From the NCBI GenBank assembly GCA_025454255.1, contig JALOOU010000010.1, positions 1 to 55,482 on the forward strand: a stretch of 55,482 nucleotides of DNA, given 5' to 3'. Position numbers and translations under genes: made by a program. The stretch is from Desulfobacterales bacterium (lineage in GTDB: Bacteria > Desulfobacterota > Desulfobacteria > Desulfobacterales > SpSt-501). Below are positions 467-17,936 of the stretch, in pieces. The notes under the pieces are model-generated. The model saw only the letters and a list, made by a program, of their open reading frames with translations, had not been told where the DNA came from and ran no database searches. Positions within the stretch are counted from its first letter, which is position 1, and every line of letters starts with the position of its first letter.

Positions 467-1459
467 CTACTTCGCAGTGGCCCCGGAGTCCTTGACCACA
501 ACCGCCCATTTTTTATGCTCGCTGGCGATAAATTGTTTGAACTGCTCGGGGGACCCGCCCACGGGGTCGGCGCCCGCGAAAACCATCTGTTTGTCGATTT
601 CGGGGTCTTTGAGGATCTCGTTCACGGCCCCATTCAACTTGTCGATGATCGAACGCGGGGTGCCGCGCGGGGCAAAGAAGCCGAACCATGAGCCCGCCTC
701 GAAGCCGGGATAGCCGTTTTCGATCATGGTTGGAATATTCGGCAGGGACCGCGATCGCTTGGCACTGCTGACCGCAATCGGCACCAGCTTGCCCGAATTG
801 ATGTGCGCCATGACCGAAGGGATGGTGGCGAACATGAAATCGACGCGGCCGGCCAGCAGATCGTTCAGTGCATCGGCGCCCTTGTAGGGGATGTGCACCG
901 CCGCCACTTTCTCCGTCTGGGCGAACATGAAGCTGGAGAGGTGCGATGAGGTGCCGATGCCCGTTGATCCGTAGGAGAGCCCGCCCTGCTTTGTCTTGCC
1001 TTTGGCGATAAGCGTTTTCAGGTCGGGGGTGTTGGCCGCGGGGGGGACGACCAGCACATTCGGCACATCGGCCAGCTGAACGACCGGCTCGAGGTCCGTG
1101 ATCGGATTGTGGGGAAGATTCTGGTAGAGGGTCGGGTTGACCGCAATGGGGCCGACGGAATTCACCATGAGCGTGTACCCGTCAGGAGCGGCGCGCACCA
1201 CAAACTCCGTGCCGATATTCCCTCCGGCACCGGGCTTGTTTTCGACAACGAACGTCTGGCCCAATTTTTCGCTCAACCGCGTGCTGACCATGCGCGTCAG
1301 CATGTCGGTGGTGCCGCCGGGCGTGAAGGCCACTATCACCTTGACCGCCTGCGTCGGGTAGGCATCGGCCGCAGGCGAGGCGGCCGGAAGCAGAAAGCTG
1401 CAGACAAGCGCGAGGATCACTGCGAGGATCGGTGCGAAGTGCTTCGAAGCCATGTGCAT
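467..1459 (-). CDS. tctC: TctC-family solute-binding protein of a tripartite tricarboxylate transporter (set 1)
   Basis: Periplasmic solute-binding component of a TTT system; it delivers a carboxylate to the TctA/TctB membrane pair. The 330-residue product starts with a hydrophobic signal segment (residues about 8-30) and has the family landmarks: FTPGGTTDML after the signal, VENKPGAGGNIG at about 72-83, and PDGYTL. The ATG at 1459 follows AGGAG with a 5-base gap; a second ATG two codons later is also possible. It is the last gene of the set tctB-tctA-tctC and the distal gene of the whole minus-strand cluster. The ligand cannot be read from sequence: TctC relatives bind citrate, tricarballylate, terephthalate, nicotinate and other carboxylates. 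Citrate or tricarballylate is favoured here only by the neighbouring tcuAB and aconitase. Confidence 0.9.
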   Translation of the reverse strand: MHMASKHFAPILAVILALVCSFLLPAASPAADAYPTQAVKVIVAFTPGGTTDMLTRMVSTRLSEKLGQTFVVENKPGAGGNIGTEFVVRAAPDGYTLMVNSVGPIAVNPTLYQNLPHNPITDLEPVVQLADVPNVLVVPPAANTPDLKTLIAKGKTKQGGLSYGSTGIGTSSHLSSFMFAQTEKVAAVHIPYKGADALNDLLAGRVDFMFATIPSVMAHINSGKLVPIAVSSAKRSRSLPNIPTMIENGYPGFEAGSWFGFFAPRGTPRSIIDKLNGAVNEILKDPEIDKQMVFAGADPVGGSPEQFKQFIASEHKKWAVVVKDSGATAK

Positions 1460-1503
1460 GGTGTCTCCTTTCCTAACCGGGTGGGTGGGGGATGGACCAG
1501 GGA

Positions 1504-3000
1504 TCAATCCGTGATGGCCCCTCGCCGTTTGCGCAGAGCCGGCAGAAGCATCGTTACCGCAATCAGGACCGTGGCGATCAGAAACCCGAGGCTGATCGGC
1601 TGGGTGACGAACACCATGGGGTCGCCGCGCGACAGCAGCAGCGCCCGACGCAGATTTTCCTCCATCATCGGCCCCAGCACAAACCCGAGCAGCATGGGCG
1701 CGGGCGGACACCCGAACTTCATCCACACGAAGCCGACCAGGCCGAAAAGCGCCGCCAGGTAGAGTTCGAAGGGGCTGTTGTTGATGCTGAAAATACCGAT
1801 GCTCGAAAAGACGATAATGGCGGGAAAAAGCATGCGGTAGGGCACCTTGAGCAGACTGACCCACAGGCCGATCAGCGGCAAGTTGAGCAAAACGAGCATT
1901 AAATTGCCGACCCACATGCTCGCGATCAGCCCCCAGAAAAGATCGGGCTTCTGGGTCATCACGGTCGGGCCCGGTGCGATGCCGTGGATCATCAGGGCGC
2001 CGAGCATGAGGGCCATCGTCCCGCTGGCAGGAATGCCCAATGTGAGCATTGGGATGAACTTGCATTGCGCGTCGGCATTGTTGGCCGACTCCGGACCCGC
2101 CACCCCCTCGATGGCTCCGTGGCCGAACCGCGACGGATCCTTGGCGACCTTCTTCTCGACCATGTAGGACGAGAAGGAGGCGACCGAGGGTCCGGTTCCG
2201 GGCAGCACGCCGAAAAATGCGCCCAGCAAAGTGCCGCGCAGGATCGGGCCGCTGGACCGCCGAAGGTCGTCTTTCGAGGGGAAAAGCGCGCCCACCTTGG
2301 AAGTGAAGATGGTGCGCTTTTCGGCGGAGCCGAGATTGGCTACGATTTCACCCAGCGCGAAGACCCCCACCGCCAGGACCACGAAACCGATGCCGTCGCC
2401 CAGCTCGGCGATGTCGAAGCTGAAACGCCGCCAGCCGGAGTTGACATCGGTTCCCACCATACCGAGCAGCAGGCCGACAATGACCATCGCCAGCGACTTG
2501 GACATGTCTCCCTGGGCGAGCATGGCCGCCGTGACCAAACCCATCAGCATCAGCGAAAAATATTCCGCCGGGCCGAACTCCAACGCGAGCTCGGCGATCG
2601 ACGGGCCGAACAGCGCGATGATCAAGGTGCACAGGGTGCCGGCGAAAAAAGACCCGATGGCCGCAATCCCTAGCGCCGGCCCGGCGCGCCCCTGTCGGGC
2701 CATCTGATACCCGTCGATGCAGGTCACGACCGCCGAGGTCTCCCCGGGCAGGTTGACCAAAATGGCGGTCGTCGAGCCCCCGTATTGCGCGCCGTAATAG
2801 ATGCCGGCCAGCATGATGAGCGCGCCCACCGGAGGAAGGCTGAAGGTGATCGGTGTCAGCATCGCAATGGTGGCGAGCGGCCCGATGCCCGGCAGGACGC
2901 CGATGAGGGTGCCCAGCAGGCACCCGAGGAAACAGTAAAGCAGATTTTGAATCGACAAGGCCACGCTGAAGCCGAAGAGTATGTTTTGAAACATCTCCAT
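1504..3000 (-). CDS. tctA: TctA-family large membrane subunit of tripartite tricarboxylate transporter (set 1)
   Basis: Inner-membrane large subunit of a TTT secondary transporter, 498 residues with about a dozen hydrophobic segments, the normal family length. It carries the two internally repeated family signatures: GVLPGIGPLAT near residue 36 followed by YGGSTTAILVNLPGE, and in the second half GVLPGTGPSVASF followed by GIPASGTMALMLGAL. These glycine/proline-rich loops are thought to form the substrate path. The start at 3000 leaves 13 bases to the end of tctB, typical of one transcript. Its paralogue at 7711-9222 is clearly different, so the two transporters probably differ in substrate or timing and are not a recent duplicate. 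Confidence 0.93.
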   Translation of the reverse strand: MEMFQNILFGFSVALSIQNLLYCFLGCLLGTLIGVLPGIGPLATIAMLTPITFSLPPVGALIMLAGIYYGAQYGGSTTAILVNLPGETSAVVTCIDGYQMARQGRAGPALGIAAIGSFFAGTLCTLIIALFGPSIAELALEFGPAEYFSLMLMGLVTAAMLAQGDMSKSLAMVIVGLLLGMVGTDVNSGWRRFSFDIAELGDGIGFVVLAVGVFALGEIVANLGSAEKRTIFTSKVGALFPSKDDLRRSSGPILRGTLLGAFFGVLPGTGPSVASFSSYMVEKKVAKDPSRFGHGAIEGVAGPESANNADAQCKFIPMLTLGIPASGTMALMLGALMIHGIAPGPTVMTQKPDLFWGLIASMWVGNLMLVLLNLPLIGLWVSLLKVPYRMLFPAIIVFSSIGIFSINNSPFELYLAALFGLVGFVWMKFGCPPAPMLLGFVLGPMMEENLRRALLLSRGDPMVFVTQPISLGFLIATVLIAVTMLLPALRKRRGAITD

Positions 3001-3013
3001 GCCGGCGCTTTCC

Positions 3014-3466
3014 TCAGAACTTGTTGATCAGGGGATAGGGCAAGCCCAGCCCCCAAATGAACACGGCCACCGAGAGAACGCACAGATAGAAGGACAGCAG
3101 CAAGGCCTCCTTGAACTTGAACTCCCGGCCGGCCGCCGCCGATATCAGCACGAGTGCGACCAGTGCCGGCACGAACCCCGCATGCCGCATCAAAACGCCG
3201 AAACCAACGATGGAGAGAGGCAGCAGGATAAGAGCTCGTATCGACCATGAGCCTTCGATCGCCTCGCTCCGGCGCAGCCCCCGCAGCATGATATACAGGC
3301 CGACCAGGATCAGCAGCCCGCTCAAGAGCATCGGGAAGTAGCCGGGTCCCATGTTCAGGGCGGTGCCAAGCGGGTAGGCCCGGGCGATCCACATCGCTCC
3401 CGCTCCGGTCCCGAAGAACATCAGGCCGGCCCAAACGTCTTTGTTGCTCCTCAGCTCTGTTTTCAT
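3014..3466 (-). CDS. tctB: TctB-family small membrane subunit of tripartite tricarboxylate transporter (set 1)
   Basis: Small four-helix membrane subunit of a TTT system, 150 residues. After a short cytoplasmic start come DVWAGLMFFGTGAGAM, the Tyr-Pro-Leu-Gly-Thr turn (YPLGTALNMGPGYFP) typical of TctB, and three more hydrophobic stretches ending in GLGLPYPLINKF. The gene overlaps the end of the upstream aminotransferase by four bases (3463-3466), so the transporter is translationally coupled to a catabolic enzyme. It leads directly into tctA and tctC, the classic B-A-C order of a TTT operon. Confidence 0.88.
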   Translation of the reverse strand: MKTELRSNKDVWAGLMFFGTGAGAMWIARAYPLGTALNMGPGYFPMLLSGLLILVGLYIMLRGLRRSEAIEGSWSIRALILLPLSIVGFGVLMRHAGFVPALVALVLISAAAGREFKFKEALLLSFYLCVLSVAVFIWGLGLPYPLINKF

Positions 3467-4670: not shown

Positions 4671-5132
4671 TCAGAATGCGATCATCGGTATCGGCATTGC
4701 AATTTTCAGGAGGACCTGGAAGAGGTAGTAGGCCAAAGCGCCGGTCGCCAGGGAGAAGAAGATGCTCTTCGGCCAGCTATGACCCTCAAGGAACCGGCTG
4801 AGAATGAAAATGAAGCATACCGTGGCGGGCGCAAAGCCGATGATCGGCATCAGGTACCGATACGCGGTCAACGCGGCAATACCGCAAAGAATCCTCTGGA
4901 GTGCTTTTTTATTGGGAAAGAAGGGAGCCGAGCCGAATTCTTGGCGCTTCGCGGCTGCGAAACCCTGGAGGGTGAAGATGGCCGACAGCCCCAGCAGAAG
5001 AATGGATGCGAGCAGAGGGAAAAACCCTCCCCCCGGCTTCTGCAATGTCCCGACGGGATAGGTGAGCGACGTCAGACACACTGCCACGCCGATCGCAAGA
5101 AAGATGACTCCGGTGACACGATCCGATTTCAT
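4671..5132 (-). CDS. tctB: TctB-family small membrane subunit of tripartite tricarboxylate transporter (set 2)
   Basis: Second TctB, 153 residues, four predicted membrane spans. It opens with MKSDRVTGVIFLAIGVAVCL, has the YPVGTLQKPGGGFFP turn that replaces YPLGTALNMGPGYFP of the first copy, and ends in KIAMPIPMIAF. It is divergent from set 1 and stands apart from its expected partners: tctC2 and tctA2 lie upstream, separated from it by a class III aminotransferase gene. Its TGA shares a base with a candidate ATG of the next aminotransferase, so it belongs to the same transcript. Confidence 0.85.
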   Translation of the reverse strand: MKSDRVTGVIFLAIGVAVCLTSLTYPVGTLQKPGGGFFPLLASILLLGLSAIFTLQGFAAAKRQEFGSAPFFPNKKALQRILCGIAALTAYRYLMPIIGFAPATVCFIFILSRFLEGHSWPKSIFFSLATGALAYYLFQVLLKIAMPIPMIAF

Positions 5133-5227: not shown

Positions 5228-6601
5228 TCAGATGCCCTTCAGCAGCCGCTTCTCCCGTATGAGCCCATCCAGGGAGCGCCCATAAGCCGCCGCCGTCTTC
5301 TGTATGTCTTCTTCGGTGTGCGCTGCAGACAGGAGCGCATCGTAGCCCCGGGTCGGCGTCTTGACCCCGTTCAACGCCAGATTCATGAAAAGGGCCTGCC
5401 CGGTGGAGAGGTCCCTCGTTTTCGCCGCATTCAGGCAGACCCCGCGGTCGCAATTTTGTTTCAGGTCGCACGGCCCGAAATAAATATGGATGACCGAAAA
5501 ACCGCTGTCGTAGACACATCCCTGGATGTGGCGCTCGTCCATTTGCCGCTGCAGGGCGTCGCGCAACATCCGCGCCTTTTGGTTGGCCGAGCGGGTGGGC
5601 GTCCCGGTGGCGATGATGTTCAAATAGGCGATGCCCGCGGCCGCGCACAAGGGATTGGCGTTGAAGGTTCCGGAATGGGCGACCCGTCGATAGCGATTCC
5701 ACTCTTCATCTTTGAGCAGAAAGAGATCCATTATATCCTGGCGGCCGGCGATGGCTCCGGCGCCGGGCATCACGCCGGAGACCCCTTTCCCCAGGGCCGT
5801 CAAATCGGGGATGACGCCCACCGCTGCCTGCACCCCGCCGGGTGAATAGCGGAACCCGGTCACCACCTCGTCGAAGAGGAGCAGAGTCCCGTACTGGGTT
5901 GTCAATTTTCGCAAGGCTGAATAGAAGGAAGGCCGGATGCCGACCACCCCTGAGCTGGCACCGGCCGCCTCCACCATCACCACGGCGACATCTCTTTTCC
6001 GCAGTGCAGCCTCCAGGTCCTCTTCGCTGTTTATGGGAATGACCAGCGTGTCCTTTACGGCGCAGGGCAGAATGCCGGCGCTGACCGGCACATCAAACGG
6101 CTTCTTGTTGCCGACGGAAACGCCATCGTACGCCCCGGCAAAGTGATACTGGAACCGGACGATCTTCTCCCTTCGGGTGAACGCCCGTGCCAGGCGAATC
6201 CCGTACATGATCGCCTCGCTGCCGGAATTCATAAATTCGACCCGCTCGGCAGACGGGACAAGCCGTTGAACGAGTTCGGCCCACTCGACCGCCAGGTCGC
6301 AGGCGGCTCCGTACTGGGTACCTTTTTGGATCTGATGGTTCACCGCCGCGACCACGGCGGGAGGGGCATGGCCCAGCAGCTTGCCTCCATGCCCCCCGTA
6401 ATAATCGATGTACTCATTGCCGTCGACATCCCAGAGGCGGGCCCCTTCGGCGCGCTGCATGTAGATCGGAAAGGGGTCGGCATACCATTGGTCATGGGAC
6501 ACCCCCCGCGGCATGACGTTGCGCGCCCTTTCGAAGAGGGCTTTCGATTGGGCGAATTTCTCCTCGTAGCGTTGCCGGGCCGAAACTTCGAGCATCTGCA
6601 C
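5228..6601 (-). CDS. Class III aminotransferase, glutamate-1-semialdehyde aminotransferase-like
   Basis: PLP enzyme of the class III (omega-amino) group, 457 residues. GSAM-like features: MPRGVSHDQ and GNEYIDYYGGHGGKLLGH at the N-terminus, NSGSEAIMYGIRLARAFT, FDEVVTGFR with the PLP aspartate at 244, and DLTALGKGVSG with the PLP lysine at 272. It is probably not the tetrapyrrole enzyme HemL: it is inside a catabolic operon, and the region after the lysine reads GVMPGAGAIAGR rather than the usual GGGLPVGA. Such paralogues often act on beta-amino or bulky carboxylated amines. It is the second aminotransferase of the cluster and sits between tctC2 and tctB2, so it probably processes an imported amine or makes an amino product. 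Confidence 0.88.
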   Translation of the reverse strand: MQMLEVSARQRYEEKFAQSKALFERARNVMPRGVSHDQWYADPFPIYMQRAEGARLWDVDGNEYIDYYGGHGGKLLGHAPPAVVAAVNHQIQKGTQYGAACDLAVEWAELVQRLVPSAERVEFMNSGSEAIMYGIRLARAFTRREKIVRFQYHFAGAYDGVSVGNKKPFDVPVSAGILPCAVKDTLVIPINSEEDLEAALRKRDVAVVMVEAAGASSGVVGIRPSFYSALRKLTTQYGTLLLFDEVVTGFRYSPGGVQAAVGVIPDLTALGKGVSGVMPGAGAIAGRQDIMDLFLLKDEEWNRYRRVAHSGTFNANPLCAAAGIAYLNIIATGTPTRSANQKARMLRDALQRQMDERHIQGCVYDSGFSVIHIYFGPCDLKQNCDRGVCLNAAKTRDLSTGQALFMNLALNGVKTPTRGYDALLSAAHTEEDIQKTAAAYGRSLDGLIREKRLLKGI

Positions 6602-7710: not shown

Positions 7711-9222
7711 TCAGGAATCGGCGCTTCCCAGCTGCTCGAGAAATCTCTTTCTTTTCCGGGAAAAAAAGACGGAGGAGCCGACAAAAAGCAGCGTCAACCC
7801 GATGAAGGTCGCCGGGAAGGGCCGCGTCAGAAAGATGCCCAGGTCCCCCTGAGACATCAGCAGCGACTGCCGGAAAGCCTCTTCCCAGATCGGTGAAAGA
7901 ATGTAGGCGAAGATCAGGGGTGCGCATTCAAAGCCGGTCTTGCGCGCGAGGTAGCCTATCACGCCGAAAAAAATCATCGACGTGACGTCCAGCAGACTGT
8001 TTTGATTCGAGTAGACGCCAATCACGCAGAAAACCAGAATCAACGGGAAAAGAATGCCGTAGGGGACTTTCAGCAGCCGCACCCAGATTCCGATCAGGGG
8101 CAGGTTCAGGACCAGGAGCATGATGTTGCCGATGTACATGCTCGCAATGACGCCCCAAAAAACGTCGGGGTGGTTTCGTATGAGCAGGGGGCCCGGGGTG
8201 ATTCCATGGATCAGGAGCGCCCCCAGGATGAGCGCCATGGTGGCGGTGGTGGGAATTCCGAACGTCAGAAGCGGCACGAACGTTCCTGAAGACGCCGAGT
8301 TGTTGGCGGCTTCCGGGCCCGCCACACCCTCGATCGCCCCCTTGCCGAAACGCTCCGGGTGCTTTGAAAACCGCTTTTCCATGATGTAGGAGACGAAGGT
8401 GCCGATCAGGGTTCCGGAAGCCGGGAGTATCCCTAAAAAAAAGCCCAGAAAGGTGCCGCGCAGGATCGGCTTGAAGGAGATTTTCCAGTCGTTCCAATCC
8501 GGGAGGAGCCCCTTGATCGAAACCTTGAAGACGTCGCGCTGGATGGTCGCCTCCAGGTTTATAAAAATTTCCCCCACACCGTAAATTCCCATGATGACCG
8601 GAAGAATGCCGACCCCTTCATAGAATTCGTTAACATTGAAGGTGAAACGCAACACTCCGGAAACCGTGTCGATGCCCTGAGTGCCGAGGATCATCCCTAA
8701 GGCCACCATGATGAAGGATTTGATCACGGGTCCGGACGACAAATAAGCGGACAGCGTCAGCCCGAAGAGAATGAGGGCGAACAACTCGGGGGGGCCGATC
8801 TGGACGGCGTAGCGCGCCACGACCGGCGCCACCAGCATCAGGAGGCACACGCTGACCGTGCCGGCGATGAAGGAGCCGATGGCCGAGATCCCCAGGGCCC
8901 TGCCCGCCCGGCCCTGTCGGGCCATTTGGTACCCATCGAGGCAGGTGACGACCGAAGAGGACTCCCCGGGAATATTCACCAAGATCGAGGTGGTGGACCC
9001 TCCATACATCGCACCGTACCAGATGCCCGCCAGCAGGATGATGGCCGTGGCCGGCGGGAGGCCGAAGGTAAACGGCAGAAGAACGGCGACGCTGCCGGCG
9101 GTTCCGATCCCCGGCAGGACCCCGACAAGGGTGCCGATCAGCACGCCGATGAAGCAATAAAAGAGGTTGGTCGGCGTGAAGGCGACGGCAAGACCGATCA
9201 TGAGGCTGTGAAGGGTATCCAT
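7711..9222 (-). CDS. tctA: TctA-family large membrane subunit of tripartite tricarboxylate transporter (set 2)
   Basis: Second TctA, 503 residues, with many membrane spans and both signature repeats: GVLPGIGTAGSVAVL and YGGSTTSILVNIPGE in the first half, GILPASGTLIGTF and FGIPTTATMALILGALLIHG in the second. It keeps Gly-Ile-Gly in the first motif but has Ala-Ser-Gly in place of Gly-Thr-Gly in the second, a difference from set 1 in the region thought to line the substrate path. It is preceded by the RraA-like aldolase gene with a 75-base gap. Confidence 0.92.
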   Translation of the reverse strand: MDTLHSLMIGLAVAFTPTNLFYCFIGVLIGTLVGVLPGIGTAGSVAVLLPFTFGLPPATAIILLAGIWYGAMYGGSTTSILVNIPGESSSVVTCLDGYQMARQGRAGRALGISAIGSFIAGTVSVCLLMLVAPVVARYAVQIGPPELFALILFGLTLSAYLSSGPVIKSFIMVALGMILGTQGIDTVSGVLRFTFNVNEFYEGVGILPVIMGIYGVGEIFINLEATIQRDVFKVSIKGLLPDWNDWKISFKPILRGTFLGFFLGILPASGTLIGTFVSYIMEKRFSKHPERFGKGAIEGVAGPEAANNSASSGTFVPLLTFGIPTTATMALILGALLIHGITPGPLLIRNHPDVFWGVIASMYIGNIMLLVLNLPLIGIWVRLLKVPYGILFPLILVFCVIGVYSNQNSLLDVTSMIFFGVIGYLARKTGFECAPLIFAYILSPIWEEAFRQSLLMSQGDLGIFLTRPFPATFIGLTLLFVGSSVFFSRKRKRFLEQLGSADS

Positions 9223-10092: not shown

Positions 10093-10863
10093 TCATTTGG
10101 TGATCTGGCAAATCCAGTCGAAGGATCGGCCGCGCTTGACCTTTTTCAAATGCAGGCAGCACTTGTAGAGGTTGGCATCATAGGTGGTGGTCACCAGCTC
10201 GACCGGCTTGCCCTTTTCGGCGTACATGATCCTCTCGGTCAACAGCGTGGGGGCTCCGGGAGCGACCTCCAAATGGGCCGCCGTCTCCTCGTCGGCGAAA
10301 GAGGCCTCTATGGTCTCGTAGGCTTCGATGAAATTGATTTTCAAGTCGTCTTCCATGATCTTCAGCAGCGGTCGCTTGAGAAGCTCCGCCTCAGGCAGCC
10401 GTCGGCCGATCTCGAGCGGAAGGAAATTGACGGTGTAGGCGCGAAACCCCTCCGGCACCAGGCGGTCTCTTCGGATCATCACCACGAGGCGCTCGTCGTC
10501 TTCCAACTCGAGCTTTTTCCGGATCAGGGGCGTCGGCTCCATTTCGGTTTTTTTTACGCTCAGCGTTTTGGATTTCATCAACGGCAAAAACAGCACATTG
10601 GTCATGTTGATGTGCTTGAGGCTCATCCCATGGATCAGTTCCTCGTTCGGGGTGACGAAGGTGCCCTTGCCCCGCTTGCGAATCAGCAACCCCTCGTCGA
10701 CCAGCGAAGACAAGGCCTGGCGTATGGTCATGCGGTTGACGTTGAACTGTTCGGCCAGATCATGCTCCGGGGGAATCTTGTCGTTCGCGCCGAAGCGTTG
10801 ATCGAGAATCCAATACTTGATGGTGCGGCGGATCTGATGGTAGACCGGGAGCACGGGTTCCAT
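10093..10863 (-). CDS. GntR-family transcriptional regulator, HutC subfamily (UTRA effector domain)
   Basis: 256-residue repressor-like protein. Residues about 5-75 are the GntR winged helix-turn-helix (IPPEHDLAEQFNVNRMTIRQALSSL, then the EGLLIRKRGKGTFV wing). Residues about 95-245 form a UTRA domain, which binds small carboxylates, sugars or histidine-pathway intermediates in the HutC group. It lies inside the cluster it probably controls, between aconitase and aldolase. A sequence matching the HutC-group operator consensus occurs at 17917-17928 in front of the first cluster gene, which supports local control. The inducer is unknown; a tricarboxylate taken up by the TTT systems is the simple guess. 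Confidence 0.9.
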   Translation of the reverse strand: MEPVLPVYHQIRRTIKYWILDQRFGANDKIPPEHDLAEQFNVNRMTIRQALSSLVDEGLLIRKRGKGTFVTPNEELIHGMSLKHINMTNVLFLPLMKSKTLSVKKTEMEPTPLIRKKLELEDDERLVVMIRRDRLVPEGFRAYTVNFLPLEIGRRLPEAELLKRPLLKIMEDDLKINFIEAYETIEASFADEETAAHLEVAPGAPTLLTERIMYAEKGKPVELVTTTYDANLYKCCLHLKKVKRGRSFDWICQITK

Positions 10864-10922: not shown

Positions 10923-12845
10923 TTACTTCCTGGCGGCATGATTCAGCAACCCGCCGCTCAGCACGATCTCGACCTGCCGCGGCGTCAGAGAATGGTACAC
11001 CCCGAAGGTCATTTGTTGGGTTCGGTTCGCCACGTGCAGCTTGGCTGCAGGCAGTTGATCGTGAACTGCGTCGATCTGAAGCTCATCCTCGGATCGAATG
11101 CGATCGTAATCCTCCGGATTTTCGAAGATCAGGGGCATGATTCCGAAATTGATCAGGTTGGCCATGTGGATGCGTTCGATGCTCTTGGCGATCACCGCGC
11201 GGACGCCAAGGAACATGGGGCAAATGGCCGCATGCTCCCGCGATGAGCCTTGCCCGTAGCTCACCCCCGCCACAATCACCGACGACCGCCCGCTCGCCTT
11301 CACCGCTTCGCAGGATTGGGCAAAACCCGGCGCGACGTCCTTGAAGACGAACGCGCTGGATTTCTCGATGTTGGATCGGTAGCGGCCCACCGAGCCGGCG
11401 GGAATGATGTGGTCGGTGGTGACCTGATCGCCCAATTTGACGGTCACCACGGCGCGCAACTGCTGCGGCATGGCGGTGTTGCAGGGAGGCTTTCCCATGT
11501 TCGGGCCGCGGAAGACCTCGCCGGAAAAGGTCGGGGGAATGAACAGGCTGCTGTCGGCAAAAAACTGCTTGGGCGGCTGAACGACCGGAACCTCCACTGC
11601 GAGGTCACGGGGGTCGGTGATTTTCCCGGTGAGTGCCGCCGCGACCGCGCTTTCGGGGCTGACCAGGTAGACCTTGGCGTCCCGGGTCCCGGACCTCCCC
11701 TCGAAATTCCGGTTGTTGGTGCGCACCGACACCGCACCGCTGTGCGGCGACTGCCCGTTGCCGACGCAAAAACCGCAGCCCGGCTCCAGGATGCGGGCGC
11801 CGGCATCCACGAAGTCGGTCAGCGCGCCGTTGGCGCTGATCATCCGCAGCACCTGACGGGTCCCGGGGGCGACGCCGAAACTGACGGCGGGATGGGCTTT
11901 TTTGCCTTTGAGCATGGCGGCCGCCGTCATCAGGTCCCTGTAGGAGGAGTTGGTGCAGCTGCCGATCAGCACCTGGTCGACCGGAATCCCTGCAACGTCT
12001 TTTATTCTTTTGACCTTGTCCGGGGAGTGCGGCAGCGCGATGTTGGGCTCGATCCGGCCCAGGTCCAGGTCCAGCTCGTGGTCGTAGCGGGCCTCGGGGT
12101 CGGGCAGGCATTCCACCCAATCCGCCTCCCGCCCCTGGGCGCGGAAGAAGGCCCGCGTGACCTGATCGCTCGGGAAAACCGAGGTCGTAACCCCCGCCTC
12201 GGCGCCCATGTTCGTCAAGGTGGCCCTTTCCGGGACCGAGAGGGTCCGGATCCCTTCGCCGCCGTATTCGAGCACCGTCCCGACGTTGCCCTTGGTGGTC
12301 ATTATTTTCAACAGCTCAAGGATGACATCCTTGGCCGTCGCCCAGGGGTTCAGCTTGCCGTGCAGATTCACCCGGACGATTTTGGGGTACGCCAGGTAGA
12401 AGGGCCCGCCGGCCATGGCCACGGCGACATCCAAGCCCCCGGCGCCGATGGCCAGCATCCCGACGGCCCCGGCCGTCGGGGTGTGGCTGTCGGTGCCGAG
12501 CAGCGTCCAGCCCGGGCGGGTCAAGCGCTCCAGATGCACCTGGTGGCAGATGCCGTTTCCCGGTCTCGAATAGAGGACCCCGTATTTGGCCGCAACCGTG
12601 CTCAGGTATTTGTGGTCGTCGGAGTTCTCGAAGCCTTCCTGAAGCATGAGGTGGTCGACGTACGAGACCGAGAGCTTCGTTTTCACCCTTTCGACGCCCA
12701 TGGCCTCAAACTCGAGATAGGTCATGGTCCCGAGCGCATCCTGGGTCAGGGTCTGGTCGATGCGGATGCTGATTTCACTGCCCGGGATCATCTCACCGGA
12801 GACCAGATGAGCGGCGATCAGTTTTTCAGTCAAATTGCGGCTCAT
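10923..12845 (-). CDS. Aconitase-family hydratase, single-chain 640-residue form
   Basis: 4Fe-4S hydro-lyase of the aconitase superfamily, with the LeuC-like catalytic part (about residues 1-410) joined to the LeuD-like swivel domain (about 450-620) in the order of AcnA, but much shorter than the 890-residue enzyme. The cluster ligands are present: Cys297 in GSCTNSS, and Cys357 and Cys360 in GCGFCVGNGQSP. Substrate-site motifs GTDSHTPTAG (117-126) and GSSREHAA in the swivel domain are intact. Compact aconitases of this type serve as the citrate/isocitrate enzyme in several anaerobes. Here the gene is next to tcuAB, so it could turn cis-aconitate from tricarballylate into citrate or isocitrate, or act on a related alkene tricarboxylate. 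Confidence 0.9.
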   Translation of the reverse strand: MSRNLTEKLIAAHLVSGEMIPGSEISIRIDQTLTQDALGTMTYLEFEAMGVERVKTKLSVSYVDHLMLQEGFENSDDHKYLSTVAAKYGVLYSRPGNGICHQVHLERLTRPGWTLLGTDSHTPTAGAVGMLAIGAGGLDVAVAMAGGPFYLAYPKIVRVNLHGKLNPWATAKDVILELLKIMTTKGNVGTVLEYGGEGIRTLSVPERATLTNMGAEAGVTTSVFPSDQVTRAFFRAQGREADWVECLPDPEARYDHELDLDLGRIEPNIALPHSPDKVKRIKDVAGIPVDQVLIGSCTNSSYRDLMTAAAMLKGKKAHPAVSFGVAPGTRQVLRMISANGALTDFVDAGARILEPGCGFCVGNGQSPHSGAVSVRTNNRNFEGRSGTRDAKVYLVSPESAVAAALTGKITDPRDLAVEVPVVQPPKQFFADSSLFIPPTFSGEVFRGPNMGKPPCNTAMPQQLRAVVTVKLGDQVTTDHIIPAGSVGRYRSNIEKSSAFVFKDVAPGFAQSCEAVKASGRSSVIVAGVSYGQGSSREHAAICPMFLGVRAVIAKSIERIHMANLINFGIMPLIFENPEDYDRIRSEDELQIDAVHDQLPAAKLHVANRTQQMTFGVYHSLTPRQVEIVLSGGLLNHAARK

Positions 12846-12866: not shown

Positions 12867-13745
12867 CTAGCGCTTTTCGTCGATGGCTTTGAAAATCTCG
12901 TGATAATCCTTCGGGGGCACCCCTTTGAAATGCGCTTTGAGCCCCAGTTGCGTGCACCATCTGAGCTTGGCCTGGGTGGCCTTGGACATGGTGCCGTCCA
13001 CGTCGAGCGCGGCGAGGGTTGCGATCACCTCCTCCATTTCGTGCTCACGCCGCTCGGAATGGATGACGCCGCGGCCGAGCAGGCCATTGACCACCTCGAG
13101 CAGCGGGCCGGCGGTCAGGGTTTCTTTCACGGACATAAGAACATCGTCCTCCACATGGTATTTGTGCGCGGCCGTGAGCATCTCCAGGAGCAGGACGACG
13201 AAGCCCTTCATGAAGATGCTGCGGAACATTTTGGAGGCCGAGGCGCTGCCCGCGGGGGCGTCCATATAGGTGATGTCCATTCCGTATGCCGACATGATCT
13301 CGGTGAAGGCCTTGGCGCCGCTGCCTGAGACCGAGACGGGGACTTTGTGCTTATAGGTGGGGACGGGCCCCATGACGGCACAATCCACGAACGAGGCCTG
13401 CGGGCGGATGATGGCGTCGATTTTTTCCTTCGTCATGGGAGAGGTGGCGTTGATGTCGACATAGATGTGGTTTTTTCGCAGAAACGGCCGGGAGTCCTCC
13501 GCCAGCGAAACCGCCATGTCGGCGCTCACGGCGGAGATCACCATTTCGCTTTCATCGAACAGCGCCGGATGGGCCGGTACCAGCCGGACATGGGCCTCTG
13601 AAGCGCGCGTCTTGATCAACTCGGAGCCGGGCGCGTCCTGCCAGAATTTGTCGTAGGCGATGATTCCGTCCAGGCCTTCGCTTTTGAGGCCCTTGGCGAT
13701 GTTGAAGGCCGCCTCGCCGAAACCGATAAACCCAAGCCGAATCAT
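12867..13745 (-). CDS. NAD(P)-dependent beta-hydroxyacid dehydrogenase-like protein with DUF1932-type C-terminal domain
   Basis: 292 residues. The Rossmann domain opens with IRLGFIGFGEAAFNIAKGL (Gly-x-Gly-x-x-Ala) and continues with ADMAVSLAEDSRPFL, YVDINATSP and VDCAVMGPVP, as in the 6-phosphogluconate/3-hydroxyisobutyrate dehydrogenase superfamily. The later part, ASKMFRSIFMKGFVVLLLEML, supplies the helical domain and the lysine expected for catalysis; it resembles DUF1932. Start: ATG 13745 follows GGGAGGA at good distance; an upstream start at 13778 adds 11 residues before the Rossmann strand and is unlikely. The likely job is reversible oxidation of a hydroxyacid made in the pathway. The family assignment is firm, the substrate open. 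Confidence 0.82.
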   Translation of the reverse strand: MIRLGFIGFGEAAFNIAKGLKSEGLDGIIAYDKFWQDAPGSELIKTRASEAHVRLVPAHPALFDESEMVISAVSADMAVSLAEDSRPFLRKNHIYVDINATSPMTKEKIDAIIRPQASFVDCAVMGPVPTYKHKVPVSVSGSGAKAFTEIMSAYGMDITYMDAPAGSASASKMFRSIFMKGFVVLLLEMLTAAHKYHVEDDVLMSVKETLTAGPLLEVVNGLLGRGVIHSERREHEMEEVIATLAALDVDGTMSKATQAKLRWCTQLGLKAHFKGVPPKDYHEIFKAIDEKR

Positions 13746-13849: not shown

Positions 13850-14956
13850 TTAGGCCCCCAGCACCTGCTTGCGTTTGCGCTCGAGCGCGAACTTCGCGAT
13901 CGCGGCGAAGCGGTAGATGCCGTGAACGAACTTTCCGTACGGAAAGGTGAGAAAAAGTCCCATAACGACCCCGAGGTGCACGACCAGAAGCGTCCCCATC
14001 GCATAGGTCTCCCGTGCGACCAGCAGGAGCAGTCCGGTCGCGCTGGCAAGCAGCAGGAGCGCCAGGAAGGCCGTGTCCATCCCGATCTGGCCCGCGTCGG
14101 TGATCTCCCGGTTGCGGCGCCGTTTGAGGATCAGCAGTCCGGCCGGACCCACCAGCAGGCCGATGCCCCCGAGGGTGCCGAGTACCACCGGCAGGCTCAG
14201 GTAGTCGTAGGGTGCCGGCCAGCCGAACACGTAGGCGTAGACCGCGGCGACGGAGGTGGCGGCGAAACAGAGCAGGAACCCGTAGAAGGTCAGGTGGTGC
14301 AGCCAGCGCCGCAGGGAAGAGCTCTCCTCGCCCGGATAGGAGCAGCCCCACCCGGCATTGTCCAGATAGTCGAGCCGCAGGGTCTCCGCGAGGGTCACTT
14401 TCAGGTTGGAGGGGCTGAAGAGGTCGAACGGCGTCTCGCCGATATCGCGGCAGAAGCGCACGAATCCGACCGCCAGCGCCGCAAGGCTGAAGAGCGCGGC
14501 CAGGCCGAAGACCGTCACGAGCGCGCCATGCGAGGCGACCTGATAGAAGTCGCCCCCCGGCACGGGGGTCGACAGCGCAGAGATCCCCTGAAAAATCACG
14601 ACCCCGAACTGGAACAGCACACAGGCCAGCGCCGTCACCAGCGCAGCCACCGCCCCGTTGGACCGGAAGGCGGCCGCCAGCGGAGCCGGCCACGCATACT
14701 GTTCGTAGGAGCGGGTCCGCATCCGCGCGAAGGTCAGCGGCGGGTTGATGTCCCACTCGTGCGGGGGGGCGTACTGGCAGGCGTAGTAGCACTCCTGGCA
14801 GTCATGGCAGAGGTTGGCGAGGTAATTCAGGTCGCCGGCGGGGAACTCCCGACGATATTCCATGGCACGCCACACGGCGCAGAACCCCTCGCAGTAGCGG
14901 CATGAATTGCAGATTCGCATCAGGTTTTCACCCTGGGCCAACAGTTCTTTATCCAT
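13850..14956 (-). CDS. tcuB: TcuB/CitB-type membrane Fe-S and cytochrome-like electron-transfer protein
   Basis: 368 residues. The N-terminal 70 residues hold two 4Fe-4S motifs: Cys16, Cys19, Cys22, Cys26 and Cys50, Cys53, Cys56, Cys60. Five or six membrane helices follow, with several histidines (for example HHLTFYGFLLCFAA and VVHLGVVMGLFLTFPYGKFVHGIYR) suited to haem b. This is the layout of TcuB (old name CitB), which in Salmonella reoxidises the FADH2 of TcuA and passes electrons to the quinone pool. It is 13 bases downstream of tcuA. In an anaerobe the electrons would go to menaquinone. Confidence 0.9.
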   Translation of the reverse strand: MDKELLAQGENLMRICNSCRYCEGFCAVWRAMEYRREFPAGDLNYLANLCHDCQECYYACQYAPPHEWDINPPLTFARMRTRSYEQYAWPAPLAAAFRSNGAVAALVTALACVLFQFGVVIFQGISALSTPVPGGDFYQVASHGALVTVFGLAALFSLAALAVGFVRFCRDIGETPFDLFSPSNLKVTLAETLRLDYLDNAGWGCSYPGEESSSLRRWLHHLTFYGFLLCFAATSVAAVYAYVFGWPAPYDYLSLPVVLGTLGGIGLLVGPAGLLILKRRRNREITDAGQIGMDTAFLALLLLASATGLLLLVARETYAMGTLLVVHLGVVMGLFLTFPYGKFVHGIYRFAAIAKFALERKRKQVLGA

Positions 14957-14969: not shown

Positions 14970-16391
14970 CTAAACAGCGGCTTTGCGTTCGGCGCCGCGG
15001 GATAGCACCGCCGCCTGCTCGCCGGCGATCCGGCCGAAGACGTTGCCGATGACGAGCCCGATGCCGCCGATGTAGCCCTTGGGCAGGATGTTTCCGGCCA
15101 TGATCTCGCCGGCGGCGAAGATGTTGGCGGCCGGCCGGCCGTCCTTGAAGATCACCGCTGCGTTCCGATCGATCTTGACGCCGTAGTAGGTGAAGGTCAG
15201 TCCGGGCCGCAGGGGATAGCCGTAGAACGGCGGCTCATCGATGCGCAGCGCCCAGTGGCTCTTGGAGGGCGTCAGCCCTTCGGTCCGGCAGTCGTCCTGG
15301 ATCGTGTGGTCGAAGGTGCCGGGCCGGACCGCCCGGTTGAACTCCTCCACCGTGGCGACCACCTTGTCGACCGGCAGATTGAACTTCTCGGCCACCTCGG
15401 CGATCGTCCGCCCTTCGACCGGCGGGAAGACCGAGGGCATGAAGCGGTCGAGCGTCTTGGAGTCGATGAACACATAGGAGATCTGGTCCGGCTGCTGAGC
15501 CACCAGACGCCCCCAGATGGCGTAGCGCATCGGCCAGAAGTCCTCGCCCTCATCGTAGTAGCGCTCTCCGTTTTTGTTCACCACGATGCCGAGGGTGACG
15601 CAGTCGAGGCGGGTGACGATGCCGCCGTCGAACTTCGGCGAGCGCGCGTCGATCGGGACCATGTGCGCCTGGGTGGGATCGCCGACCGACTCCGCCCCGT
15701 GATCCAGCAGGAGTTTCAGCAGCGTGCCGGTGTCGAACGGGGCGCCGCGGATCAGGAAATTGTCCGCGGCCGGACCCCATGCCTGTCGCAGCCAGGCCAG
15801 ATTGGACTGGAACCCACCGGCCGCCACCACGACCGCCTGGGCGGGGACGCAGACCGTTTTCCCTTCGATCCGTACGGCGGCGCTGCGAAAACGCCCCGCG
15901 CGCACATCCAGACCGACCACTTCGGCATCATAGCGAACCTGCACGCCCAACCGTTCGGCGCTTCGGAAAAGCGCGTTGACCATCGCCTTGCCGCCGCCTA
16001 AAAACCAGGCGTTGGTGCGGCCCAAGTGCAGCGTTCCCGCCAAGGCCGGCTGGAACCGGACGCCGTGGGTCTGCATCCATGCGAGGATGGAGCTCGAGCC
16101 GCCGACGACCATTTTGGCCAATTCCAGGTCGCCCTCGCCGCCGGTCGCCTTCAGGTAGTTCTCCCACATTTCCGCTTCGGGGTAAGCGCCGGTGTAGGGT
16201 GCGAACTGCGTCTCGTGCGCCAGGCGCATGTTGCGCGTGTGCCGGCTGTTCCCGCCCCGGAAGTGTTTCGGGGAGCACTCGAGCAAAATCACGCGCGCAC
16301 CCTTTTCGCGCGCGGCGATCGCCGCGCTCAAGGCCGCCGCGCCGCCGCCGATCACCAACACATCCGTTCCTGCTGAAAGTTCCTGATCCAT
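14970..16391 (-). CDS. tcuA: TcuA-type FAD-dependent tricarballylate dehydrogenase
   Basis: 473-residue flavoprotein of the fumarate reductase/succinate dehydrogenase flavoprotein family. The FAD site is DVLVIGGGAAALSAAIAA followed by an acidic end of strand two (VILLE). HFRGGNSRHTRNMRLAH is the characteristic TcuA stretch, and the C-terminal part (AAGEIMAGNILPKGYIGG) closes the FAD site. TcuA oxidises tricarballylate to cis-aconitate and works only with TcuB, whose gene follows. The third Salmonella partner, the MFS transporter TcuC, is missing; the two TTT systems probably replace it. The substrate could also be another saturated tricarboxylate, so the name rests on family and on the tcuAB pairing. 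Confidence 0.9.
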   Translation of the reverse strand: MDQELSAGTDVLVIGGGAAALSAAIAAREKGARVILLECSPKHFRGGNSRHTRNMRLAHETQFAPYTGAYPEAEMWENYLKATGGEGDLELAKMVVGGSSSILAWMQTHGVRFQPALAGTLHLGRTNAWFLGGGKAMVNALFRSAERLGVQVRYDAEVVGLDVRAGRFRSAAVRIEGKTVCVPAQAVVVAAGGFQSNLAWLRQAWGPAADNFLIRGAPFDTGTLLKLLLDHGAESVGDPTQAHMVPIDARSPKFDGGIVTRLDCVTLGIVVNKNGERYYDEGEDFWPMRYAIWGRLVAQQPDQISYVFIDSKTLDRFMPSVFPPVEGRTIAEVAEKFNLPVDKVVATVEEFNRAVRPGTFDHTIQDDCRTEGLTPSKSHWALRIDEPPFYGYPLRPGLTFTYYGVKIDRNAAVIFKDGRPAANIFAAGEIMAGNILPKGYIGGIGLVIGNVFGRIAGEQAAVLSRGAERKAAV

Positions 16392-16445
16392 GACCCTCTC
16401 CCCACGCCGCTTTTATATCCCTGGTGTGTGCCGTCCCTTCTTGAC

Positions 16446-17834
16446 TTAGGGCCTGTCGGGCTTTCCCAGCAGCGCCGTCAGCTCGCGGACGTTCCTGTTT
16501 TCGATGTCGAAAATAATGTCCCGCATCCTCCCTATTCGATCGGCGGCGTATAGCGCGGAGGCGTTTTTCTCGAACTTTTCGGCCAACTCCTCGTCGCTGA
16601 TCGGATTTTCGGGCTCCCCCTTCGAGTAGGTCACCTCGCGGGTGTAGGCGTGCGTATCCGTTCGGATGGTAACCTGCGCCCCTCGCTTCTCCGGATAGAC
16701 CTCGTCGCGTTCGGGGCGAGCGTGCACGCTGACTCTCTTTGCGATGGATTGGACCCTTGGGTCCGACACGAATTGCGTGCGGTACACCGAGGCGTCGCTC
16801 CGGCCGAAGACCAGCAGCAGACCGACGGCGATCGGGGTGCTGAATTTGGCGCCGAGCTCGGATTCCGCGGTCGCCATATGTCCGGTGAGGCTTTTGGCGA
16901 TCGAGTAGGTTTCGATGTCGATCGAATCGATTTTTTCGAGGGACAAGGAGGGGTCGGCGGCCAATTCGGCCACCGCGTCCAGGGCCGAATGGATGTGCCG
17001 GCAGGCGGCATGCGCTTTGATGTAAACACCCGGCAGGTGGTAATGTTCCCCGAGGCCCCGGCAGATGGCGTAACGATCGCACGGCGTGGCCGCAAATGCC
17101 TTGAAGAACCCCTTCTCGCCTTCAAATACGCCTTCCGGCCCGTCGGCGCCTTGCTGCGCCAAGAGGGCTGCCAGGACCCCGCTTTGGGCGGCCTTGCCCA
17201 CCTGAAACGATTTTCCGCTCTCCCCGCTGTGCAGAACCTCCAGAAGTCCGGCGCTCTGGAGGCCTGACAGGGAAAGTGCATTTTCGATTTGCGGAAGACT
17301 CAAGTCGAGCAGCGTGGCTGCGACCGCACCGGAGGAGAAACAGCCGATGGTCGCGGTGGTGTGAAACCCGCGCAACAGCAGGTTTGGATTGACTGCGGAT
17401 CCGAGCCGGATGAAAAACTCGTACCCGGCCGCTATCGCCGAGATCAGCTCGCGGCCCGTCAGATCGGCTTTTTCGGCCAGCGCCACCGCAGCCGGGATGA
17501 CGACCACTCCGGGGTGGCCGTTGGCGTAGCGGTGGCCGTCGTCCATGTCGATGGCATGCCCCTGCACCGCGTTCATGAAAACCGCCGTCAGCACCGACAC
17601 CTTCGCGTCGGACCCCCAGAGGGTGGCCTCCTCGCCTCCGCCCATCGCCGGGAGGAGCCGGCGGACCATGACCGCTGCCCGCTGGCGGCTGCCGGCGATG
17701 CCGACCCCGATCAGATCGAGCAGGCAGCGCTTGGCGTGATGGATGACGGTGTCGGGAAGGCTGGCGAAAGAGAGGTCGTGGATGAAGTGGGCAAGTTCTC
17801 GCCGGAGGGGAACAGGGGTGATCGGCTGCTCCAT
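16446..17834 (-). CDS. MmgE/PrpD-family protein (2-methylcitrate dehydratase/cis-aconitate decarboxylase superfamily)
   Basis: 462 residues, the first gene of the catabolic cluster. Family landmarks: AIDMDDGHRYANGHPG with the Asp-Asp and His residues of the active-site loop, GFHTTATIGCFSS, FQVGKAAQSGVLAALL with the conserved lysine, and KAHAACRHIH before the second domain. Members include 2-methylcitrate dehydratase PrpD, which makes 2-methyl-cis-aconitate, and cis-aconitate decarboxylase, which makes itaconate; many are uncharacterised. No prpB, prpC or prpE lies nearby, so a methylcitrate cycle is not indicated. Position before tcuAB and aconitase suggests a tricarboxylate with a hydroxyl or a double bond. 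Start at ATG 17834, with GGGGAGG about 9 bases upstream. Confidence 0.85.
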   Translation of the reverse strand: MEQPITPVPLRRELAHFIHDLSFASLPDTVIHHAKRCLLDLIGVGIAGSRQRAAVMVRRLLPAMGGGEEATLWGSDAKVSVLTAVFMNAVQGHAIDMDDGHRYANGHPGVVVIPAAVALAEKADLTGRELISAIAAGYEFFIRLGSAVNPNLLLRGFHTTATIGCFSSGAVAATLLDLSLPQIENALSLSGLQSAGLLEVLHSGESGKSFQVGKAAQSGVLAALLAQQGADGPEGVFEGEKGFFKAFAATPCDRYAICRGLGEHYHLPGVYIKAHAACRHIHSALDAVAELAADPSLSLEKIDSIDIETYSIAKSLTGHMATAESELGAKFSTPIAVGLLLVFGRSDASVYRTQFVSDPRVQSIAKRVSVHARPERDEVYPEKRGAQVTIRTDTHAYTREVTYSKGEPENPISDEELAEKFEKNASALYAADRIGRMRDIIFDIENRNVRELTALLGKPDRP

Positions 17835-17900
17835 TTTGGTCAGGCCTCCCCGGAGTTGAGCGTTCTGGAGAAATCTGGGGGTGGAGTAGAGTAACGGGAG

Positions 17901-17936
17901 CTGTCTAATTGTTTAACTGTCTATACAAATGTTCAA
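17901..17936 (-). promoter_or_regulatory. Candidate GntR/HutC operator and promoter of the tcu/TTT cluster
   Basis: On the minus strand GTATAGAC (17919-17926) fits the GTMTAKAC consensus described for HutC-subfamily GntR proteins. Sixteen bases on, a second copy of the half TAGACAG occurs (TTAGACAG), so two sites in tandem are possible. A TTGAAC hexamer at 17931-17936 and AACAAT 17 bases later form a weak -35/-10 pair with the operator in the spacer, as for a repressor. The cluster itself encodes a HutC-type regulator at 10093-10863. Confidence 0.5.

What the first reader, a model, noticed from the sequence alone, without database searches (positions are those of the whole stretch)
467..17926. 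Tricarballylate-type catabolic island with TcuAB, aconitase, RraA aldolase, two aminotransferases and two TTT transporters
All genes lie on one strand with short gaps or overlaps. Seen: TcuA and TcuB families, a compact aconitase, a MmgE/PrpD protein, an RraA-type aldolase, a beta-hydroxyacid dehydrogenase, two different PLP aminotransferases, a HutC-type regulator and six transporter genes forming two distinct TTT sets. Known: TcuAB in Salmonella turns tricarballylate into cis-aconitate with the MFS carrier TcuC; RraA-type aldolases split 4-hydroxy-4-carboxy-2-oxo acids. Inference: TTT replaces TcuC. The aldolase and aminotransferases are not needed for tricarballylate, so the real substrate may be an amino or oxo derivative: oxidation, hydration, transamination and aldol cleavage would then give pyruvate plus oxaloacetate. 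I know of no described pathway with this set.
Basis: partly seen in the sequence, partly recalled or inferred. Interest (0 to 1): 0.8.

Follow-up and report, generated by a model that had tools for sequence, protein, structure and literature searches.

The report
Operon for eating unusual carboxylic acids
An uncultured relative of sulfate-reducing bacteria carries a 15-gene unit that looks built to import and break down a branched, probably nitrogen- or hydroxyl-bearing carboxylic acid, using a tricarballylate-type enzyme whose normally fixed residues have changed; its substrate is not known.

Summary
One other species of the genus (G001) has the same 15 genes in the same order, in a different place; all 15 are under purifying selection, and RraA (91% identical) is among the best kept. 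The block was not found in the other five genus genomes.

Elsewhere the set was not seen together. In 80 named TcuA loci, none has RraA, the DUF1932 dehydrogenase, either aminotransferase or the regulator within 6 kb (44 loci have 6 kb on both sides); TctC is near 26 and TctA near 14, so TTT beside tcuAB is ordinary.

Two results point away from plain tricarballylate. The island TcuA is the most deviant of 87 compared (13 of 153 conserved columns, median 1), with K288M beside the arginine aligned to fumarate reductase's conserved arginine. And some extra genes recur elsewhere as modules.

Best reading: a composite, GntR-controlled operon for a branched di- or tricarboxylate with an amino, hydroxy or oxo group.

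The parts
17900..17960 (-). possible promoter and regulator site: TTGACA, 18 bp, TATAGA, with TGTATAGACA (17918-17927) over the second hexamer
   Evidence: read from the sequence; 14-mer ACATTTGTATAGAC shared with the region upstream of the same operon in G001, whose flank is otherwise unlike; only TGTNTANACA in the window, 4 of 100 shuffles have one. Against: the consensus promoter scan did not list it; G001 lacks an exact TGTNTANACA
16446..17834 (-). MmgE/PrpD-family protein (PrpD)
   Evidence: PF03972+PF19305; nearest solved IDS-epimerase and bacterial IRG1; most dicarboxylate-binding residues kept, second-base Tyr is Leu, His of the KPxH motif is Gln
14970..16391 (-). TcuA-family FAD dehydrogenase
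   Evidence: NF006130 666 bits, cut-off 369; 13 of 153 conserved columns changed
13850..14956 (-). TcuB-family 4Fe-4S membrane protein
   Evidence: TIGR02484 370 bits, cut-off 247; NF011607 435, cut-off 524
12867..13745 (-). DUF1932 NAD(P)-dependent hydroxyacid dehydrogenase-like (HADH)
   Evidence: PF09130; nearest solved 3qsg, 4ezb
10923..12845 (-). compact (single-chain) aconitase
   Evidence: NF005558 888 bits, cut-off 612; TIGR01342 835, cut-off 719
10093..10863 (-). GntR/UTRA (HutC-type) regulator
   Evidence: PF00392+PF07702
9298..10002 (-). RraA-like aldolase/decarboxylase
   Evidence: PF03737; aligned to CHA aldolase 3noj with Arg123 and Asp124 kept
7711..9222 (-). TctA1
   Evidence: PF01970
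6677..7645 (-). TctC1 binding protein
   Evidence: PF03401; nearest solved 4x9t and BugD
5228..6601 (-). class III aminotransferase (AT3)
   Evidence: PF00202; nearest solved D-phenylglycine aminotransferase and GSAM
4671..5132 (-). TctB1
   Evidence: PF07331
3463..4605 (-). class I/II aminotransferase (AT1); the open frame begins at 4671
   Evidence: PF00155; nearest solved 1gd9
3014..3466 (-). TctB2
   Evidence: PF07331
1504..3000 (-). TctA2
   Evidence: PF01970
467..1459 (-). TctC2 binding protein
   Evidence: PF03401; nearest solved 2dvz, recalled to be the glutamate-binding BugE

Best explanation
A single GntR/UTRA-controlled catabolic operon put together from modules. Two TTT systems import carboxylates. 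AT1, AT3 and the DUF1932 dehydrogenase turn an amino or hydroxy group of the imported acid(s) into an oxo group. The TcuAB-type dehydrogenase oxidises a succinate-like part of the molecule and passes electrons through TcuB to quinone; the MmgE/PrpD protein and the aconitase isomerise, dehydrate or hydrate the product. The RraA-type enzyme, through a pyruvate enolate, cleaves the resulting 4-hydroxy-4-carboxy-2-oxo acid or decarboxylates oxaloacetate, giving pyruvate and TCA-cycle acids. The natural substrate is probably not tricarballylate itself but a branched di- or tricarboxylate with an amino, hydroxy or oxo group. Shown: the genes, the conserved block, selection on every gene, the changed TcuA, and recurrent sub-modules. 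Inferred: one transcript, every reaction step and the substrate class.
For: Same 15 genes in the same order in G001; pN/pS 0.08-0.34 in all 15 genes; shared promoter-region 14-mer. TcuA deviates at 13 of 153 conserved columns (median of 87 rows 1, next highest 7) and at 7 of 113 near-invariant ones (next highest 4); with two duplicate rows removed, 14 and 15 of 157 for the two island copies against at most 7. K288M lies beside R289, aligned to the conserved Arg of flavocytochrome c. RraA keeps Arg123/Asp124 of CHA aldolase (roles from passages of PMC5065237). RraA lies beside HADH in 5 of 25 other HADH loci, 3 of 23 without the two plasmids already known to have it; RraA occurs in 2 of 80 TcuA loci, 1,326,055 bases, at E 1e-8. 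AT3 relatives (64-67%) lie beside TTT, Liv-type ABC or TRAP genes and, in 4 of 5, an ornithine-cyclodeaminase-family gene.
Against: No substrate, product or expression data. Outside the two genomes the set is not seen together (0 of 80 TcuA loci for RraA, HADH, AT1, AT3, GntR within 6 kb). The HADH relatives read in the phylum had no RraA neighbour. TcuA and aconitase pass the curated cut-offs by a wide margin, which also suits plain tricarballylate use. The PrpD protein lacks the second-base Tyr of the epimerases, the Tyr318 of mammalian IRG1 and the His of the KPxH motif, so its reaction is unassigned.
Confidence: 0.42

Rival explanations
1. Ordinary tricarballylate/aconitate operon with accessory genes: TTT imports tricarballylate, TcuAB makes cis-aconitate, aconitase makes isocitrate; RraA only decarboxylates oxaloacetate and AT1 is an aspartate/glutamate transaminase balancing carbon.
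For: TcuA, TcuB (TIGR02484) and aconitase pass curated cut-offs; TctC and TctA stand near tcuAB in 26 and 14 of 80 loci; the same genome has another TTT+PrpF+PrpD+aconitase cluster (L196); CHA aldolase-type enzymes decarboxylate oxaloacetate (passages of PMC5065237).
Against: TcuA is the most deviant of 87 at conserved columns; two aminotransferases, a DUF1932 dehydrogenase and an aldolase under selection are not needed for that route; five other tcuAB loci of the genus and order lack the extras in the stretches read, apart from a 32% class I aminotransferase about 6.8 kb from tcuA in G005.
Confidence: 0.25
2. Several small pathways under one promoter: TTT1+AT3 for an amino acid, HADH+RraA for a hydroxy acid, TcuAB+PrpD+aconitase for a tricarboxylate, AT1+TTT2 for another amino acid.
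For: Sub-modules recur alone: HADH-RraA, TctA-TctC-AT3 (L166), PrpD+aconitase+TTT (L196); the three AT1 relatives read are not clustered with the other parts.
Against: One regulator, one conserved promoter-region segment, interleaved order (AT3 inside TTT1; HADH and RraA separated by aconitase and GntR) and the identical order in two species.
Confidence: 0.23
3. The block degrades amino acids in the main; the TcuA homologue oxidises an amino-dicarboxylate-derived acid and the aconitase is housekeeping.
For: AT3 kin lie with Liv-type ABC, ornithine-cyclodeaminase-family and 5-oxoprolinase-type genes; both TctC are near Bug proteins, recalled to bind aspartate and glutamate.
Against: Bug homology does not fix ligands: the terephthalate-binding protein scores nearly as well for TctC2 (223 vs 233 bits); the genome has other aconitase-family genes, one full-length at 57%, so this copy need not be the housekeeping one.
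Confidence: 0.1

Closest known systems
Salmonella tcuABC tricarballylate operon
   Same: TcuA and TcuB homologues adjacent and in the same order
   Different: no MFS TcuC in the block; TTT instead; adds PrpD, aconitase, HADH, RraA, two aminotransferases, GntR; TcuA changed at otherwise fixed positions
[quoted passage not shown]
   Same: RraA family, catalytic Arg123 and Asp124 kept, pyruvate-enolate chemistry expected
   Different: scores under the curated cut-offs for that enzyme; no ring-cleavage genes among the 15
Itaconate/methylsuccinate cluster with an MmgE/PrpD isomerase (PMC12290011, passages)
   Same: MmgE/PrpD protein next to a dehydrogenase of a branched dicarboxylate; a TTT binding-protein gene near the C. 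necator cluster
   Different: that dehydrogenase is an acyl-CoA enzyme and the lyase CoA-dependent; here no CoA genes, and the second-base Tyr position is Leu
TTT+PrpF+PrpD+aconitase cluster of the same genome (L196)
   Same: TTT, MmgE/PrpD (35%) and compact aconitase (56-57%) together
   Different: has PrpF and a regulator that looks PrpR-like; no tcuAB, aldolase or aminotransferase found in the 20 kb read

Membership tests
TcuA tricarballylate dehydrogenase | passes the curated NCBIfam cut-offs | tested here: met
   NF006130 666 vs 369; TIGR02485 583 vs 373
TcuA tricarballylate dehydrogenase | residues fixed across the relatives compared (K288, D78 and F278 in 85 of 85 other rows, 83 distinct) | tested here: not met
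   M, N, Y in both island copies. 80 of the 85 rows were found with peptide patterns covering 278 and 288 that allow F/Y and K/M
TcuA tricarballylate dehydrogenase | oxidises tricarballylate to cis-aconitate | not testable with these tools
   needs enzyme assay
TcuB | passes curated cut-offs | tested here: inconclusive
   TIGR02484 370 vs 247 met; NF011607 435 vs 524 not met
tcuABC operon | MFS carrier TcuC in the operon | tested here: not met
   14 of 15 genes have a Pfam match and TcuB an NCBIfam match; none is MFS
HMG/CHA aldolase | catalytic Arg123 and Asp124 | tested here: met
   alignment to 3noj; roles in passages of PMC5065237
HMG/CHA aldolase | curated cut-off | tested here: not met
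   NF006731 155 vs 179; TIGR02798 132 vs 305
IDS epimerase / methylsuccinate isomerase | second-base Tyr (Y145 of IDS epimerase) | tested here: not met
   Leu153 in window, Leu in G001; role in passages of PMC7347537 and PMC12290011
MmgE/PrpD superfamily | residues holding the 1,4-dicarboxylate | tested here: met
   H93, D96, H107, H158, K208, K273 kept. Matching them to the residues listed in PMC12290011 is by motif and spacing; its isomerase sequence was not aligned. A nearby His shared by the three solved proteins is Gln211 here
cis-aconitate decarboxylase (IRG1) | Tyr318 and His277 of the mammalian enzyme | tested here: inconclusive
   Y318 position is not Tyr (Lys); the H277 position is His in the MAFFT alignment but not in HMMER's
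aconitase | curated cut-off | tested here: met
   NF005558 888 vs 612
glutamate-1-semialdehyde aminomutase | curated cut-off | tested here: not met
   hemL 300 vs 527, NF000818 318 vs 398
guanitoxin enzymes GntC/GntE | curated cut-off | tested here: not met
   AT1 303 vs 415, AT3 245 vs 525
TTT transporter | TctA, TctB and TctC all present | tested here: met
   two full sets

The most novel reading that the evidence does not exclude
An undescribed pathway in which a 4-carboxy-2-amino- or 2-hydroxy-adipate-like C7 acid is taken up by TTT, converted to the 2-oxo acid by AT1/AT3 or the DUF1932 dehydrogenase, dehydrogenated at its succinyl part by a re-tooled TcuAB, hydrated by an aconitase-type enzyme to a 4-carboxy-4-hydroxy-2-oxo acid, and split by the RraA aldolase to pyruvate plus oxaloacetate, all without coenzyme A. 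The TcuA changes (K288M and others) would be the adaptation to the longer side chain.
Probability: 0.12. Interest if true: 0.65.

Novelty: new variant of a known kind. Interest (0 to 1): 0.42.

Why it matters
This genome has 15 TctA genes, and for most transporters of this kind the substrate is, to my knowledge, not known. A conserved block that ties two of them to a fixed enzyme set, with a changed TcuA, gives a concrete, assayable way to find what one such cluster eats, and to learn what the uncharacterised DUF1932-RraA pair does.

Tried and rejected
Rejected: (1) cluster as part of the tRNA-Leu integrative element. The integrase end (about 1-285) lies on the 3' side of tRNA-Leu and the catabolic block on the 5' side; the longest repeats shared by the two flanks of the block were 8 bp direct and 9 bp inverted in the window and 9 bp direct in G001, which I take for chance. 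(2) Recent exchange between the two genomes: the one core gene compared, MnmG, is 84% identical with dS 0.74, and island genes run 65-91% with dS 0.73-1.67, so the block is about as old as the split or older. (3) IDS epimerase or methylsuccinate isomerase as the PrpD-like protein: second-base Tyr absent; IRG1 is left inconclusive. (4) GntC/GntE and GSAM: under cut-offs.

Led nowhere: viral-contig scan (no relatives); HADH in 247 genomes of one family (none at E 1e-60); RraA relatives in the phylum (5 of 395 genomes including the window's at 1e-42; of the three loci fetched, one has TctC and TctA homologues within a few kb, none another block gene); AT1 relatives not clustered with the rest; papers naming DUF1932 (2 unrelated), RraA, aldolase and TTT, the HMG aldolase with aminotransferase and gene cluster (listing only), tricarballylate with aminotransferase, aldolase and operon. 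Structure prediction, fold search and Rfam tools were not used.

Checked on re-reading: L024-L026, fetched and at first left unread, were annotated (only a 36% AT3 relative in G002, some 20 kb from its tcuA). The 87-row TcuA comparison holds two duplicate pairs; it was redone without the duplicates, with the same outcome.
Full report
WHAT IS THERE. The window is the whole of contig C49 of a 4.11-Mb draft genome (194 contigs, 87% complete). From 17834 down to 467 lie 15 intact genes on the minus strand: PrpD-like, TcuA, TcuB, DUF1932 dehydrogenase (HADH), compact aconitase, GntR/UTRA, RraA, TctA1, TctC1, class III aminotransferase (AT3), TctB1, class I aminotransferase (AT1), TctB2, TctA2, TctC2. 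The largest gap is about 104 bp.

IT IS A UNIT. G001, of the same genus, has the same 15 genes in the same order (65-91% amino-acid identity). DNA similarity stops at the ends of the block. On the upstream side the flanks differ over many kilobases. On the downstream side the window has only 466 bp left before the contig ends (tRNA-Leu and an integrase end), and no tRNA was found in the G001 stretches, so that side is tested over a short span only. Upstream of the first gene the two genomes share a 14-mer, ACATTTGTATAGAC, just below a TTGACA box. In the window it forms part of TGTATAGACA, the only TGTNTANACA in 55,482 bp (4 of 100 shuffles have one), a sequence of the sort I recall for HutC/GntR operators. 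Against this: the consensus promoter scan did not list the site, and G001 has no exact TGTNTANACA. All 15 genes show pN/pS of 0.08-0.34.

DISTRIBUTION. In 58 relatives, 7 genomes including the window's have a TcuA at 1e-60: six of the genus and one elsewhere in the order. Of the 7 genus genomes, only the window's and G001 have a close AT3 (81%); G002-G004 have at most 39%, G005 and G006 (85% and 80% complete) none at 1e-60. The five other tcuAB loci (G002, G003, G004, G005, G031) lack the extra genes in the stretches read, apart from a 32% class I aminotransferase about 6.8 kb from tcuA in G005; three have TctA and TctC homologues.

HISTORY. MnmG, the one core gene compared, differs between the two genomes about as much as the block does (84%, dS 0.74; block dS 0.73-1.67). 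GC3 of every block gene is lower than MnmG's in both genomes. So the block was probably gained before the two species parted and later moved, or gained twice from like sources. The island TcuA does not group with the other TcuAs of its genus; it sits on a stem of 0.8 changes per site elsewhere in the family (its pairing with L069 has support of 96/78 only).

THE CHANGED TCUA. Compared with 85 other TcuA rows (83 distinct), the island copies differ at 13 of 153 columns conserved at 95%. As a control I counted the same for each of the 87 rows, leaving out kin over 80% identical: median 1, next highest 7; at near-invariant columns the island has 7 of 113, next highest 4. Without the two duplicate rows the island copies have 14 and 15 of 157, the next highest 7. 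K288 is Lys in 85 of 85 other rows and Met in both island copies. It precedes R289, which HMMER aligns with an Arg of flavocytochrome c fumarate reductase; K288 itself falls in a four-residue insertion there (that this Arg is the catalytic acid is recalled). H243 and R289 are kept. Caveat: 80 of the 85 rows are the best 80 of 577 loci found with two peptide patterns that cover positions 278 and 288, allowing F/Y and K/M.

THE PRPD-LIKE PROTEIN. Its nearest solved relatives are IDS epimerase and B. subtilis IRG1, with 2-methylcitrate dehydratase much weaker. Residues that match those said to hold the 1,4-dicarboxylate part (passages of PMC12290011; matched by motif and spacing) are kept: H93, D96, H107, H158, K208, K273. 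The second-base Tyr of the epimerases is Leu, the Tyr318 position of the mammalian decarboxylase is Lys, and the His of the KPxH motif, present in all three solved proteins, is Gln in both island copies (roles of the Tyr residues from passages of PMC7347537). PMC12290011 also says that the B. subtilis protein has no shown activity. I leave its reaction open.

RRAA AND THE DUF1932 DEHYDROGENASE. RraA aligns to CHA aldolase 3noj with Arg123 and Asp124 kept, said to stabilise the enolate and bind the metal (passages of PMC5065237); it scores under the curated cut-offs of that enzyme. In 25 other DUF1932 loci, with up to 1.5 kb each side, 5 have an RraA gene beside the dehydrogenase (E 1e-26 or better). 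Two of these are plasmids that I put into the search after seeing their RraA neighbour, so the fair count is 3 of 23. As a yardstick, RraA occurs in 2 of 80 TcuA loci (1,326,055 bases) at E 1e-8. In the two plasmids, SLC13/TRAP or citrate-symporter genes lie nearby. Against: in the phylum, where 7 of 395 genomes including the window's have the dehydrogenase at 1e-15, none of the seven other loci read had RraA.

THE AMINOTRANSFERASES. AT3 is closest to D-phenylglycine aminotransferase and GSAM among solved structures. Relatives at 64-67% occur in 5 of 8 genomes of one family in the phylum; these five genomes are listed with 6-9% contamination. Of the 5 loci, an ornithine-cyclodeaminase-family gene is next to AT3 in 4 (Pfam-checked in 2; the other 2 by likeness of their N-termini). 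TctA (64%) and TctC (42%) precede AT3 in 1, a Liv-type ABC system in 1 (binding protein Pfam-checked), 5-oxoprolinase-type genes in 2 (1 Pfam-checked), a TRAP binding protein in 1, and 1 has a class I aminotransferase and, on the other strand, a PrpD-like gene. AT1 relatives (59-66%) in 3 genomes of the same family are not clustered with the other parts.

CONTEXT OF TCUAB ELSEWHERE. In 80 named loci (44 with at least 6 kb on both sides), within 6 kb of TcuA at E 1e-15: TcuB 79, TctC 26, TctA 14, PrpD-like 5, aconitase 1, TctB 1; RraA, HADH, AT1, AT3 and GntR 0. At E 1e-8 these five are still 0 within 6 kb; farther off there are RraA in 2, AT3 in 2 and GntR in 3 loci. The same genome has a separate PrpF/TctCBA/PrpD/aconitase cluster with a regulator that I read as PrpR-like (L196; PrpF Pfam-checked). 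G004 has TctA, aconitase and a gene that reads as isocitrate dehydrogenase in a row (L209; not HMM-checked).

HOW IT MOST LIKELY WORKS. Inducer relieves the GntR repressor; TTT systems import the acid; aminotransferases and the DUF1932 dehydrogenase make an oxo acid; TcuAB oxidises a succinyl part; PrpD-like protein and aconitase move or add water; RraA cleaves or decarboxylates to pyruvate. All reaction steps are inference from families. Plain tricarballylate use with accessory genes, and several pathways under one promoter, remain live.

LITERATURE. In the open-access library I found no paper holding tricarballylate with aminotransferase, aldolase and operon or RraA and aldolase with TTT, and none on DUF1932 proteins (two unrelated papers). 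Tricarballylate with 'tripartite tricarboxylate' gave two papers seen only in listing. The Salmonella operon facts come from passages of PMC10468695. Most subscription papers are not held, so this is no proof of absence.

VERDICT. Real, conserved, selected; parts known, combination seen in two genomes only in what I searched; substrate unknown. New variant of a known kind.

Noticed in passing
window 1-285 (+) and 309-395 (-): What reads as the C-terminal end of a tyrosine integrase (by its motif, recalled; not HMM-checked) runs up to the 3' side of tRNA-Leu(caa), so an integrative element probably lies beyond the contig end. The tRNA is 71 bp downstream of tctC2 on the same strand; a terminator-like stem (294-272) follows the tRNA.
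   Followed up: partly
L196 6301-16110 (G000:C124): Second TTT cluster in the same genome with PrpF, PrpD-like (35%), compact aconitase (56-57%) and a regulator that looks PrpR-like: perhaps an aconitate- or citrate-type operon.
   Followed up: partly
L132, L133, L143, L144, L149: DUF1932 dehydrogenase and RraA aldolase adjacent in five loci: an uncharacterised enzyme pair.
   Followed up: partly
L163, L164, L166, L167: Class III aminotransferase next to an ornithine-cyclodeaminase-family gene with varying transporters, two with 5-oxoprolinase-type genes.
   Followed up: partly
L161 10670-15048 (G276:C99): AT3 relative (67%) beside a class I aminotransferase and, on the opposite strand, a PrpD-like gene (39%).
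   Followed up: no
L209 8652-12424 (G004:C130): TctA-like, aconitase (58%) and a gene that reads as isocitrate dehydrogenase in a row.
   Followed up: no
G000, 15 places: Fifteen TctA genes in a 4.1-Mb draft genome; the stretches read around them are.
   Followed up: partly
window 30782-33754 (+): A 990-aa protein with a pyruvate phosphate dikinase ATP-binding domain, not examined further.
   Followed up: no
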